Origin: Ktedonobacteraceae bacterium
GTDB taxonomy: Bacteria; Chloroflexota; Ktedonobacteria; Ktedonobacterales; Ktedonobacteraceae
Assembly (NCBI GenBank): GCA_019240835.1
Contig: JAFAXQ010000154.1
Coordinates: 1 to 48,963 of the forward strand
Direction: 5' to 3'
DNA: 48,963 nucleotides
A model generated the notes under the pieces. It was not told the DNA's origin, did not search any database, and saw nothing but the letters and a program-made list of their open reading frames with translations. Below are positions 1-23,407 of this stretch, piece after piece. Each line of letters opens with the position of its first letter. Within the stretch, counting starts at the first letter, position 1. A program made the position numbers and the translations under genes.

Positions 1-62
1 TCGGCTAGCGCGCAGCGTTCGGGACGCTGAGGTCGGAGGTTCAAGTCCTCTCACCCCGACCA
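1..62 (+). tRNA. tRNA-Pro (anticodon CGG), 5' end truncated by window edge
   Basis: Anticodon stem-loop CAGCG-TTCGGGA-CGCTG, T-arm GGAGG-TTCAAGT-CCTCT, acceptor 3' strand CACCCCG-A-CCA ending at 62. Confidence 0.85.
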
Positions 63-406: not shown

Positions 407-949
407 ATGCCTGTTCTTGTATTGAATTCCTCGCTACAGCCTCTCTCGGTCATTCCAGAACGTCGTCTCATCGTCTTGCTCTCCAAGCAGAAGGTCACAT
501 TCGTAGATGAGAATGTTCGTAGGTTGATCGAAGAGAGTATCGCCGCCCGTCGTCTTGATTTGGAGCGCCCTGTGATTGTGCAGTTGCTGGTCAATGTGCG
601 CCTACCACGCATCGCCCTCCAGCCTACCCGAGCCAATATCCTACTACGAGATGACGAAGTGTGTCAGTACTGTGCCAAGCGCAGTCGCGACCTAACACTT
701 GACCATGTCATCCCTCGTTCTCGTGGCGGACAAAGTACCTGGGAAAATCTGGTTGCTTGCTGTAAAACGTGTAACGGCAAGAAGGGCAACCGCTTGCTCA
801 AAGAAGCGAATATGCACCTGATCCGTCAGCCGCGACCCTTGCCGCAAGAGTACGCGGGTGTCTTCCTCTTGCGCTATCCCAAACTGCGTGAGGCCTACGA
901 AGAGTTTATCACGAGCTTCCACAGCGGTGGACAGGGCATGACTGCCTAA
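407..949 (+). CDS. HNH endonuclease family protein
   Basis: HNH core CQYC...LDHVIPRSRGGQSTWENLVACCKTCNGKKGNR; ATG at 407 with GGAAGGG upstream. Confidence 0.88.
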   Translation: MPVLVLNSSLQPLSVIPERRLIVLLSKQKVTFVDENVRRLIEESIAARRLDLERPVIVQLLVNVRLPRIALQPTRANILLRDDEVCQYCAKRSRDLTLDHVIPRSRGGQSTWENLVACCKTCNGKKGNRLLKEANMHLIRQPRPLPQEYAGVFLLRYPKLREAYEEFITSFHSGGQGMTA

Positions 950-19721: not shown

Positions 19722-20537
19722 TTGAGTTTTCAGCAACTACCAGAAGTTTTTTATAACAATAAAACAGCCCGCGAAAAACTTGGCATGACACGAGATGCCT
19801 TTAATCATTATGTTAAGACAGGAGCCATTACACCCACAAAGATTATCGGAAAGTACCGATACTTTGCGAAAAGCGAAATAGATTTGCTAGCTCGATCTAT
19901 TCAGACAGCGATACTTACCGCCAAATCTCCGCATATTCAGTTCAAAAAGGCAACACTGGATCAGCAAGAGGAGGAATTGGAATTAGCGGAGTTGACATTT
20001 GGCGAGAGAACAAAGGCATTCCACCAGTATCGTCGCCAATTGCTTGAGATAAACCCCGACATGTCGTACTACTTGTACGATGGAAAATACATGACGGCTT
20101 CCATTAACATTGTACCGCTTAGCCATGAGGGCATCCTCAAGTTTAAGGAAGGTGAACGGGGATGGCTCATGGGCGACTATATTGAGCAGTTCAAGCCTGG
20201 CAAAGTAGAGTTGATTATCATTGACATGATGACAACGCCTTTGGCTCCAGCAAATAAACGGAAGGTGTATGCAGTTCGCCTCTTGCTTGGACTAGAAGCA
20301 GTTCTTATTGATTGGGCGAACCTAGGTATTGAGATTGTCAGCATCTATGCGTGCGGGGGAACGCCAGACGGACGAGAAATACTAGAGAATGCACATTTCG
20401 TGTACTTAGGAGAACCGCGCCCTAATCGACATATCTACGAATTAGAGATTGCCACATCCGGCTTGCATGTTCTTGAGCCTTACAGGCAAGCTTTGCAAGC
20501 ATACAAAGAGAAGAATTCCGTAGATGCGGTAGAGTAG
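19722..20537 (+). CDS. HTH (MerR/excisionase-like) protein with uncharacterised C-terminal domain
   Basis: REKLGMTRDAFNHYVKTGAITPTKIIGKYRYFAKSEIDLLA HTH; C-terminal part LLGLEAVLIDWANLGIEIVSIYACGGTPDGREILENAHFV possibly GNAT-like; start codon uncertain (TTG). Confidence 0.6.
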   Translation: MSFQQLPEVFYNNKTAREKLGMTRDAFNHYVKTGAITPTKIIGKYRYFAKSEIDLLARSIQTAILTAKSPHIQFKKATLDQQEEELELAELTFGERTKAFHQYRRQLLEINPDMSYYLYDGKYMTASINIVPLSHEGILKFKEGERGWLMGDYIEQFKPGKVELIIIDMMTTPLAPANKRKVYAVRLLLGLEAVLIDWANLGIEIVSIYACGGTPDGREILENAHFVYLGEPRPNRHIYELEIATSGLHVLEPYRQALQAYKEKNSVDAVE

Positions 20538-20639
20538 ATTCGGACGGAGCTGCGAACAAAAGTGTCAGAAAACGCTAGATTTGTCTACAGTTCTTGAAAC
20601 GTGATCACACTACAGTGTAGCACACTATAGAAGGAACAC

Positions 20640-20890
20640 ATATCTTGTCAAGAACCCCTCCCGTAGAATGGGAGAGGCTTGTGTGCAAGCAGAAGCCTGA
20701 TCTTGACCAGACTCAGCCTGTAAGGGCTCTGTTAGAGACGAATGTATAGGTACCTACGGGTGCGAGGCCAGCCTGTAGCTCTACGGTCACTCATTAAACA
20801 GGTGTACGGGTGAAGCCAGTGTGAGTGACATTTGAAACCGTCGCATAACTTTGTCGAGGCCACCATTACCCTAGCAATAGGAGGCTCATC
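20640..20890 (+). ncRNA. Putative IscB omegaRNA region (exact ends and guide undetermined)
   Basis: Structured 250-nt leader immediately 5' of iscB: CCCCTCCC/GGGAGAGG hairpin, GCTTG-TGTG-CAAGC hairpin, GTCACTCA (20786-20793) / TGAGTGAC (20822-20829). Confidence 0.7.
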
Positions 20891-22207
20891 ATGAGCAAGG
20901 TGTTTGTGCTGGATACGATGCATCGGGCACTTGACCCAGTGCGTCCTGGATATGCACGTACATTGTTATCATCGGGGAAAGCTGCTGTGTTCCGTCGCTC
21001 TCCCTTTACTATTATCCTGAAAAAGGAAGTGCCTGAACCAATTACACCACCACTCCGCTTGAAGATCGACCCTGGCAGCAAAACCACAGGGCTTGCTGTG
21101 GTCAACGATGCATCAGGGGAAGTGGTCTTTGCTGCCGAATTGCAGCATCGGGGACACACAATTAAGAAAGCTTTAGATGTTCGTCGCGCTGTGCGGCGAA
21201 ATCGGAGACAACGCCAAACCCGCTATCGTCAACCTCGCTTCAAGAATAGAAAGAGGTCAAAAGGCTGGCTCCCACCTTCGCTAGAAAGTCGCATTGCCAA
21301 TGTACTAACTTGGGCACAGCGACTTATGCGGTTGTGCCCTATTGCGGCGATCTCACAAGAGGTAGTCAAATTTGACTTACAGAAGCAAGACCATCCAGAG
21401 ATAGCAGGAGTGCAGTATCAGCAGGGAGAACTCTTTGGCTACGAGGTACGAGAGTATCTGCTAGAGAAGTGGGGACGGCACTGTGCCTACTGTAATGCAA
21501 AGGACGTCCCACTGCAAGTGGAGCATATCACACCGCGTGCCAGAGGAGGCAGCAACCGTGTGGGCAATCTCACCCTCGCTTGTGAGCCGTGCAACATGAA
21601 GAAAGGCACGCAAGCTATCACGACCTTCCTTGCCAACAAGCCTGATGTGTTGAAACGGGTACTTGCCCAAGCCAAAGCTCCTCTCAAGGATGCTGCTGCG
21701 GTCAATACCACTCGTTTGGCACTCTATGATCGACTCAAAGCCTTTGGGCTGCCTATAGAATGTGGCTCAGGCGGTTTAACCAAGTACAACCGCACAACAC
21801 GCGGGCTGGCTAAGACCCACTGGTGTGATGCAGCCTGTGTGGGCAAGAGCACGCCCGATGTCCTGTGTGTCAAGGCAGTGGTGCCACTGCTCATCATGGC
21901 GACGGGGCACGGTTCACGACAAATGTGCCGCATGAACAAGCACGGTTTCCCACGCACCGGACCGAAGCAAGCGAAGTCGGTCAAAGGCTTCCAGACGGGG
22001 GATATGGTACGGGCTGTCGTGGCCACAGGTAAGAAGCAAGGAACATATGTCGGGCGTGTGGCCGTACGGACACGTGGCATCTTCAACATCACGACCGCAC
22101 AGGGCGTGGTTGCTGACATTCCTGCTCGTTTCTGTGTCCTTATTGCGCATAGTGATGGGTACAAGTATTCCCAGCGAAAGGAGGCGGCACTTCCTCCCTC
22201 AGCCTGA
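20891..22207 (+). CDS. iscB: RNA-guided endonuclease IscB (RuvC with inserted HNH)
   Basis: RuvC-I IDPGSKTTGLAVV, RuvC-II ISQEVVKFDLQ, HNH CAYCNAKDVPLQVEHITPRARGGSNRVGNLTLACEPCNMKKG, RuvC-III KTHWCDAACVG; bridge helix RRNRRQRQTRYRQPRFKNR. Confidence 0.95.
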   Translation: MSKVFVLDTMHRALDPVRPGYARTLLSSGKAAVFRRSPFTIILKKEVPEPITPPLRLKIDPGSKTTGLAVVNDASGEVVFAAELQHRGHTIKKALDVRRAVRRNRRQRQTRYRQPRFKNRKRSKGWLPPSLESRIANVLTWAQRLMRLCPIAAISQEVVKFDLQKQDHPEIAGVQYQQGELFGYEVREYLLEKWGRHCAYCNAKDVPLQVEHITPRARGGSNRVGNLTLACEPCNMKKGTQAITTFLANKPDVLKRVLAQAKAPLKDAAAVNTTRLALYDRLKAFGLPIECGSGGLTKYNRTTRGLAKTHWCDAACVGKSTPDVLCVKAVVPLLIMATGHGSRQMCRMNKHGFPRTGPKQAKSVKGFQTGDMVRAVVATGKKQGTYVGRVAVRTRGIFNITTAQGVVADIPARFCVLIAHSDGYKYSQRKEAALPPSA

Positions 22208-22237
22208 AGGCGTGCGGGTACCTGTGCCGTGATTTTT

Positions 22238-23407
22238 ATGGCTCTTACTCTCGCTATTATTGGTCTGCCCCAGAGTGGTAAGACAACGTTATTCAATGCA
22301 TTGACAAAAGCGGGTGCGCCTATTAGCGGCTATGCGACTAGCAGCGTGCAGGCTAATGTAGCGGTGGTACAGGTGCCGGATCCACGCCTTGCGCCGCTGG
22401 CCGAGATCTTCAAACCTAAGAAAACCACCTACACGACTGTCGAATTTGTTGATGTGGCAGGTATGGGACAGGCAACGCAATCCTCTAAGGAGAAGCGCGA
22501 GGGATTAAGCCCCGAATTTTTAGGCCATATTCGTAACGCTGATGCGCTAGCCATTGTCCTACGCACGTTCGTCAACGAGAATGTGCCGCATATCTATGGT
22601 AACATCGACCCTGATCGCGACCTAGATAGCCTCAATGCCGAACTGACGCTCACTGATCTTGCTACGGTTGAACGTCGCATCGAACGTACGACCAAAGCAG
22701 CCAAATCCGGTGACAAAAAGTACCAGCAGGAGCTAGAAGTGCTACGGCGCTTGCAAGATGCGCTCAACGAGTTGAACTTGGCCAGCCAAGTTCAACTCTC
22801 GTCACAAGAGGCAAGTATGCTGAACGAACTCTTCTTGCTGACTATGAAGCCGCGTATGTATGTTCTCAATGTGAGCGAGGAAGTACTCGGTGCAGCCAAT
22901 GATATACTCGCTAGCATCGCACGGGGTGAGAGCTGCGAGGATGTTAAAGGTGAGCTGAAAGGCATTGTCACGGTTGCGCAACGGGCAAAAAAAGAAGGGG
23001 CCGAAGTGGTCGCCGTCTCTGCACGCTTAGAGGCCGAACTAGCCGAGCTGGCGGAGGAAGACGCACACGAGTACCTGGAATCGCTTGGCCTACCGCAACT
23101 GGGAGCCGACCGCGTCATTCAGGTAGGGTATCACCTGCTTAACCTGATTACCTTCCTAACCGCAGGCGAAGACGAGGTGCGTGCTTGGACTGTCACCAAA
23201 GGTGCCAAAGCTCCCGAAGCTGCTGGTAAAATTCACTCAGACATTGAACGCGGCTTTATTCGTGCCGAGGTGACGCGCTTCGAGGACTTCATGACTGTAG
23301 GCTCCTTCGCTGCCGCCGTCAAGAAGGGGTTACAGCGGCTTGAAGGGAAAGACTACGTTGTGCAGGATGGTGATATCGTTCACTTCCGCTTTAATGTTGG
23401 TAAATAA
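22238..23407 (+). CDS. ychF: YchF/OLA1-type redox-regulated ATPase
   Basis: LAIIGLPQSGKTTLFNALTKAGA, FVDVAGMGQ, LINLITFLTAGEDEVRAWTV, C-terminal TGS-like YVVQDGDIVHFRFNV. Confidence 0.93.
   Translation: MALTLAIIGLPQSGKTTLFNALTKAGAPISGYATSSVQANVAVVQVPDPRLAPLAEIFKPKKTTYTTVEFVDVAGMGQATQSSKEKREGLSPEFLGHIRNADALAIVLRTFVNENVPHIYGNIDPDRDLDSLNAELTLTDLATVERRIERTTKAAKSGDKKYQQELEVLRRLQDALNELNLASQVQLSSQEASMLNELFLLTMKPRMYVLNVSEEVLGAANDILASIARGESCEDVKGELKGIVTVAQRAKKEGAEVVAVSARLEAELAELAEEDAHEYLESLGLPQLGADRVIQVGYHLLNLITFLTAGEDEVRAWTVTKGAKAPEAAGKIHSDIERGFIRAEVTRFEDFMTVGSFAAAVKKGLQRLEGKDYVVQDGDIVHFRFNVGK

What the first reader, a model, noticed from the sequence alone, without database searches (positions are those of the whole stretch)
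20640..22207. Apparently intact IscB RNA-guided nuclease with its own omegaRNA-like leader
The ORF keeps all three RuvC motifs (IDPGSK, SQEVVKF, HWCDA), a complete HNH and an Arg-rich bridge helix. The 250 nt upstream contain several complementary segments, including GTCACTCA/TGAGTGAC, as expected for an omegaRNA scaffold. No transposase gene is visible nearby, so it may be a solo or domesticated copy. IscB/omegaRNA as a class is described; this locus and its guide and target are not determined here.
Basis: partly seen in the sequence, partly recalled or inferred. Interest (0 to 1): 0.72.

Follow-up and report, generated by a model that had tools for sequence, protein, structure and literature searches.

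The report
IscB transposon wedged before a start codon
This is a complete mobile element carrying IscB, the RNA-guided nuclease ancestral to Cas9; it sits exactly between the ribosome-binding site and the start codon of the host gene ychF, and comparison with relatives suggests that this family often lands there and brings its own replacement ribosome-binding site.

Summary
The ORF at 20891-22207 is a full-length IscB (NCBIfam guided_IscB, 451 bits, cut-off 175) with all RuvC and HNH motifs. Its leader is an omegaRNA (Rfam HEARO, 20647-20869, 123 bits, gathering score 83). As a class this is known.

New here are boundaries, guide and target. The element is 20647-22237 (1,591 bp), between the Shine-Dalgarno (SD, AGAAGGA) and the ATG of ychF. 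The predicted guide, AAGGAACACATATCTT, is ychF's own translation-initiation region; the predicted TAM is ATGG, its start codon. For a related element, two sister genomes show the empty site, SD and ATG rejoined to the base.

Of 44 related elements, 26 abut the start of an ORF of at least 100 aa, against about 5% of comparable intergenic sites. Their right ends share AAAGGAG, a hairpin with covarying arms, about 7-8 nt, then ATGR: apparently a hairpin-bridged ribosome-binding site that restores translation of the displaced gene. That last step is inferred and untested.

Domestication is not supported. No intact Y1 transposase was found, so the copy is probably stranded. The original HEARO, ISC and OMEGA papers could not be read, so novelty of the start-codon pattern is provisional.

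The parts
20629..20635 (+). Native Shine-Dalgarno of ychF (AGAAGGA), now cut off from its start codon by the element
   Evidence: Rejoining the flanks gives AGAAGGAACACATATCTT-ATGGCTC; ychF relatives keep a similar SD about 8-13 nt before ATG, e.g. AGAGAAGGAATAAATAAAT-ATG
20631..20646 (+). Predicted 16-nt omegaRNA guide AAGGAACACATATCTT (host sequence 5' of the left end)
   Evidence: Lies directly 5' of HEARO position 1; an 18-nt version has no other match with fewer than 3 mismatches in the genome. Guide length taken from general knowledge of IscB
20647..22237 (+). Whole IscB element, left end GTCAAGAACCCC to right end ...GATTTTT (1,591 bp)
   Evidence: Ends set by homology to a near-identical pair of copies (L046/L047) and to a related element whose empty site is found in two sister genomes
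20647..20869 (+). omegaRNA scaffold (HEARO)
   Evidence: Rfam RF02033, 123.4 bits, model 1-211/211
20786..20829 (+).
   Evidence: Helix of the HEARO model
20891..22207 (+). iscB, 438 aa RNA-guided endonuclease
   Evidence: NF040563 451.4 bits, cut-off 175; RRXRR and HNH; aligned to solved IscB structures
22177..22183 (+). Element-borne Shine-Dalgarno-like AAAGGAG at the 5' foot of the terminal hairpin
   Evidence: SD core at this position in 21 of 39 elements whose hairpin was found without looking for it; about 2-3 of 39 elsewhere
22184..22230 (+). Right-end hairpin, arms GCGGCAC (22184-22190) and GTGCCGT (22224-22230)
   Evidence: Present in the centroid structure; arms covary across copies
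22238..22241 (+). ATGG: predicted TAM / target site, and the start codon of ychF
   Evidence: ychF homology begins at this ATG; 43 of 44 related elements are followed by [AG]TG[AG], a motif that the right-end search partly required
22238..23407 (+). ychF, host gene displaced from its SD
   Evidence: TIGR00092 360 bits, cut-off 279

Best explanation
This is an IS200/IS605-related IscB (HEARO) element inserted, without target duplication or loss, between the SD and the ATG of ychF in a Ktedonobacteraceae genome (Chloroflexota). Transcription from the ychF leader would run into the element. The last ~16 nt of the leader then form the 5' guide of the omegaRNA, followed by the HEARO scaffold and the iscB message. 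The IscB RNP would cut any ychF allele that lacks the element (target AAGGAACACATATCTT, TAM ATGG), so that repair copies the element back. The resident copy is safe because its guide sequence is followed by GTCA, not by the TAM. The insertion displaces ychF from its own SD. The right end supplies AAAGGAG, a hairpin, 7 nt, then the ychF ATG: a hairpin-bridged ribosome-binding site, with the iscB stop codon inside the hairpin, so ychF could still be translated, perhaps coupled to iscB. Shown by sequence comparison: element, boundaries, guide position, SD/ATG split, family-wide recurrence, covarying hairpin. Inferred: transcription, cleavage, TAM use, copying back, translation from the bridged SD.
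For: IscB and HEARO models match full length. Flank rejoining recreates a normal ychF initiation region that matches relatives. The left end is exact in a 99.8% identical pair of copies in different places. In G016 and G020 the site ...GTAGGAGATGTTCTG|ATGGTTGACC is empty, while in G023 a related element lies exactly at the bar. 26 of 44 elements abut the start of an ORF of at least 100 aa, against 4.9% of intergenic and 20.9% of all [AG]TGR sites in the same flanks; 18 of 41 also have an SD in the rejoined left flank, against 2.4-3.6%. Four of eleven annotated plasmid copies end exactly at an annotated CDS start. An SD core peaks sharply at the hairpin foot when hairpins are found without it. 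Own arms pair better than swapped arms, 0 of 10,000 permutations. The SD lies in all three iscB reading phases, and after the iscB stop in two copies, so coding alone does not explain it.
Against: No empty ychF site of the same species or genus was available; the only same-genus genome (83% complete) has no ychF match. The window's own hairpin is followed by GATTTTT and also scores as terminator-like. For the window the fold is not stronger than shuffles (z = -0.99). About 40% of elements do not abut an ORF of at least 100 aa. No expression, cleavage or translation data exist here. No intact TnpA is found in the assembly.
Confidence: 0.75

Rival explanations
1. An ordinary IscB element whose right-end hairpin is only a transposase recognition structure or a transcription terminator. 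AAAGGAG is there because it encodes the iscB C-terminus, and start codons are hit simply because the target motif is ATGA/ATGG and insertions inside genes are lost.
For: The hairpin plus GATTTTT scores as a terminator. Both ends carry a similar CCCCATGCCT..AGGCAGGGG palindrome in relatives, as expected for IS200/IS605 ends. In 41 of 43 copies the SD lies before the iscB stop.
Against: The T run is absent in many copies (GAAAAGAG, GGAATTAG, AAAATCTG, ACGTGAG). The intergenic null already excludes gene interiors and predicts about 5%, not 59%. The SD occurs in three reading phases and outside the ORF in two copies.
Confidence: 0.3
2. A domesticated IscB that has been kept for a host function such as regulating ychF or defence.
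For: Single full-length iscB copy in the genome and no intact transposase.
Against: Catalytic motifs are intact and both ends are preserved; the guide has no other target in the genome and matches its own insertion joint. None of the 27 relatives whose ychF upstream was read carries the insertion.
Confidence: 0.06
3. A dying relic: the element is stranded and not expressed, and the arrangement has no present function.
For: Only a Y1 fragment next to a deleted TnpB-like ORF remains in the genome; a second right end on contig C288 and a degenerate solo HEARO on C189 look like decayed copies.
Against: The iscB ORF has no disruption and the scaffold matches HEARO well above its cut-off.
Confidence: 0.25

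Closest known systems
IscB / omegaRNA (OMEGA) systems, e.g. OgeuIscB; Rfam HEARO RF02033
   Same: Protein family, domain order, 5' omegaRNA with guide at its 5' end, TAM on the 3' side. ATGR fits the first four positions of the NWRR-type TAMs named for OgeuIscB and OrufIscB (PMC13180657)
   Different: Only distantly similar to solved IscBs. The start-codon insertion and the SD-hairpin-ATG right end did not come up in the papers I could search (PMC9755519, PMC13180657, PMC9640706)
ISC / IS200-IS605 transposons
   Same: Hairpin-bearing ends and insertion without target duplication
   Different: No TnpA in the element; the nuclease is IscB rather than TnpB
Hairpin-bridged ribosome-binding sites such as phage T4 genes 38 and 25 (from memory, not checked)
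   Same: A hairpin placed between SD and start codon brings the two to working distance
   Different: Here the structure belongs to a transposon end and serves whatever gene lies next to it; function untested

Membership tests
IscB / omegaRNA (OMEGA) element | IscB protein with split RuvC, HNH, bridge helix and catalytic residues | tested here: met
   NF040563 full length, 451 bits; motifs read; aligned to solved IscB
IscB / omegaRNA (OMEGA) element | omegaRNA (HEARO) directly upstream of iscB | tested here: met
   RF02033 123.4 bits, above 83
IscB / omegaRNA (OMEGA) element | Guide taken from the left flank, target = rejoined insertion site | tested here: met
   By anatomy only: flank rejoining for ychF; exact empty sites for a related element
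IscB / omegaRNA (OMEGA) element | RNA-guided DNA cleavage with a TAM | not testable with these tools
   Needs protein and RNA
IS200/IS605 transposon | Insertion next to a short fixed motif without duplication or loss | tested here: met
   [AG]TG[AG] follows 43 of 44 right ends, though the search partly required it; clean joint
IS200/IS605 transposon | Y1 TnpA encoded in the element | tested here: not met
   None in the element; only a fragment in the genome. Most IscB loci lack TnpA (PMC9755519), so this fits a non-autonomous member
Hairpin-bridged ribosome-binding site | SD, hairpin, start codon at working distance once the hairpin is looped out | tested here: met
   in the window itself the fold is not stronger than shuffles
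Hairpin-bridged ribosome-binding site | Translation depends on the SD and the hairpin | not testable with these tools
   Needs a reporter assay

The most novel reading that the evidence does not exclude
HEARO-type IscB transposons as a family aim at translation starts: they insert between SD and start codon, use the host gene's own initiation region as guide and its start codon as TAM, and carry a hairpin-bridged SD at the right end that replaces the host's. This would make the insertion nearly harmless while the host promoter drives omegaRNA and IscB.
Probability: 0.5. Interest if true: 0.75.

Novelty: new member of a known kind. Interest (0 to 1): 0.58.

Why it matters
IscB is the ancestor of Cas9, and how such elements persist without harming the host is open. 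If the right end really acts as a portable ribosome-binding site, it explains how they can sit in front of important genes, where the guide comes from, and why the TAM resembles a start codon. It also gives a simple rule (SD | element | ATGR) for reading natural guides and TAMs from sequence. The rule can be tested in E. coli with a reporter.

Tried and rejected
An empty ychF site in the same genus was sought; G001 has no ychF match. An empty site for L143 was sought in its genus; the gene was not found in the other three genomes. For L149 a homologue was fetched but my script could not place its upstream. A MAFFT alignment of right ends misplaced the 3' arms, so formal pair counts were dropped for an arm-swapping test. 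My first right-end detector missed the window because of how it penalised mismatches and was rewritten. Before the statistics six doubtful right-end assignments were dropped and one (L155) was re-set by hand; for four copies I moved the start back by 3 nt, which one search shows was wrong for L045 but does not change its start call. Domestication and defence were considered: PADLOC hits only the shared HNH domain. Literature: Weinberg 2009, Kapitonov 2016 and Altae-Tran 2021 are not held; from memory, Weinberg noted ATGA/GTGA at HEARO insertion sites, which would fit.

Full report
What was checked. The ORF at 20891-22207 encodes a 438-aa protein with IDPGS, an Arg-rich segment, SQEVVKF, LQVEHITPRARGG and HWCDA. 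It matches NCBIfam guided_IscB over the whole model at 451 bits (cut-off 175), and Pfam RRXRR and HNH. Solved IscB proteins are found by sequence, among them OgeuIscB. The leader matches Rfam HEARO at 20647-20869 end to end, 123.4 bits against a gathering score of 83.

Where it sits. The genome is an unnamed assembly of 4.34 Mb. Contigs of its family members coincide in length and position with Ktedonobacter and Dictyobacter records, so it is most likely a member of Ktedonobacteraceae, Chloroflexota. It holds one full iscB. The next gene is ychF (TIGR00092), and its homology to relatives begins at the ATG at 22238. In relatives the ychF ATG is preceded by an SD about 8-13 nt upstream, for instance AGAGAAGGAATAAATAAAT-ATG. 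In the window no such SD directly precedes the ATG, but the bases just left of the element are AGAAGGAACACATATCTT. Joined, they give AGAAGGAACACATATCTT-ATGGCTC, a normal initiation region.

Boundaries. Two copies 99.8% identical over 1,605 bp at different places in G024 show that the element begins at GTCAGG (HEARO position 1) and ends ...GAAAAGAG before ATGA; the 96% identical pair L052/L053 agrees. The clearest evidence is a related element in G023 in front of a kinase-like gene. The same gene in G016 and G020 (99-100% identical) is preceded by ...GTAGGAGATGTTCTG|ATGGTTGACC. In G023 a 1,591-bp element lies exactly at the bar, with nothing duplicated or lost. By homology the window's element is 20647-22237, also 1,591 bp.

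Guide, TAM and self-protection. IscB guides are the host bases at the 5' end of the omegaRNA (general knowledge; PMC9755519 describes the reprogrammable 5' spacer). Here that is AAGGAACACATATCTT (20631-20646), that is, the ychF SD and spacer. The TAM, on the 3' side, would be ATGG, the ychF start codon. An 18-nt version of the guide has no other hit in the genome with fewer than 3 mismatches. In the filled allele the guide sequence is followed by GTCA, so the host copy should be spared. These points are inference from anatomy.

A family pattern. The right end was located in related elements (50-68% identity for nearly all) from Chloroflexota, Myxococcota, Nitrospira, Acidithiobacillus, Halomonas and kin, Marinobacter and Cupriavidus, by a search that did not look at genes. 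After dropping doubtful cases, 26 of 44 elements abut an [AG]TG that starts an ORF of at least 100 aa. In the same flanks this is true of 20.9% of all [AG]TGR sites (mostly in-frame codons inside genes) and 4.9% of intergenic ones. Requiring also an SD in the rejoined left flank, 18 of 41 pass, against 3.6% and 2.4%. Twelve plasmid copies were opened, eleven of them annotated; in four the right end meets an annotated CDS start to the base, including parB with parA on the other side of the element. The 'ATGR' tally is partly built in, since the detector looked for [AG]TG; the ORF and SD results are not, except that L155 was re-set by hand.

The right end as a ribosome-binding site. The ends read AAAGGAG, a 5-16-bp stem in a hairpin of about 40-90 nt, about 7-8 nt, then the start codon. 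In the window: AAAGGAG 22177-22183, GCGGCAC 22184-22190, GTGCCGT 22224-22230, GATTTTT, ATG. When hairpins are found without regard to SD, an SD core sits at the hairpin foot in 21 of 39, and in about 2-3 of 39 when the window is slid elsewhere. Own arms pair better than arms swapped between copies (mean 19.0 against 12.4; 0 of 10,000 permutations), with 30 different 5' arms among 42. The SD lies in all three iscB reading phases and in two copies after the iscB stop; in 35 of 43 the iscB stop lies between SD and host start. That is the layout of a hairpin-bridged SD with possible translational coupling. Limits: the single window fold is not better than shuffles, and the hairpin with its T run also scores as a terminator.

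Mobility. No TnpA lies in the element and only a Y1 C-terminal fragment is in the assembly, beside a deleted TnpB-like ORF. Only a few HEARO nucleases are found with TnpA in general (PMC9755519). The copy is probably unable to move by itself now, but there is no sign of domestication.

Verdict. The locus is a good new member of a known kind. The start-codon insertion and the portable ribosome-binding site are the interesting part; the first is well supported by comparison, the second is a testable inference. I could not read the original HEARO, ISC and OMEGA papers, so earlier notice of the start-codon preference cannot be excluded.

Noticed in passing
L002 1501-1681 (G000:C189:4640-4820): A solo HEARO-like RNA (70.7 bits, below the gathering score) without iscB. 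Its left flank ends ATAGAGGAGTTCC and 181 bp later an ORF begins ATGGCTGG, so it too separates an SD from a start codon. It could be a mini-element or a guide served in trans by the window's IscB.
   Followed up: partly
L036 2953-3014 (G000:C288:17452-17513): A lone right-end relic, 80% identical to window 22176-22245, with AAAGGAGGCGGCAC...GATTTTTAT but no iscB found.
   Followed up: partly
L136 1450-1981 (G000:C45): Remains of a TnpA (last ~42 residues of Y1_Tnp) followed by an internally deleted TnpB-like ORF.
   Followed up: partly
window 19722-20537: 271-aa ORF just upstream with no Pfam, NCBIfam or PADLOC hit but at least five relatives in the same-genus genome G001; an uncharacterised multi-copy family.
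   Followed up: no
window 638-799: A second HNH-containing ORF (338-949) weakly similar to the IscB HNH (35% over 54 aa).
   Followed up: no
window 1-59: A tRNA cut by the contig start (Rfam tRNA 33 bits).
   Followed up: no
L170 1258-2878: In Deinococcus sp. KNUC1210 an IscB element sits between parA and parB of a plasmid, ending exactly at the parB start codon.
   Followed up: partly
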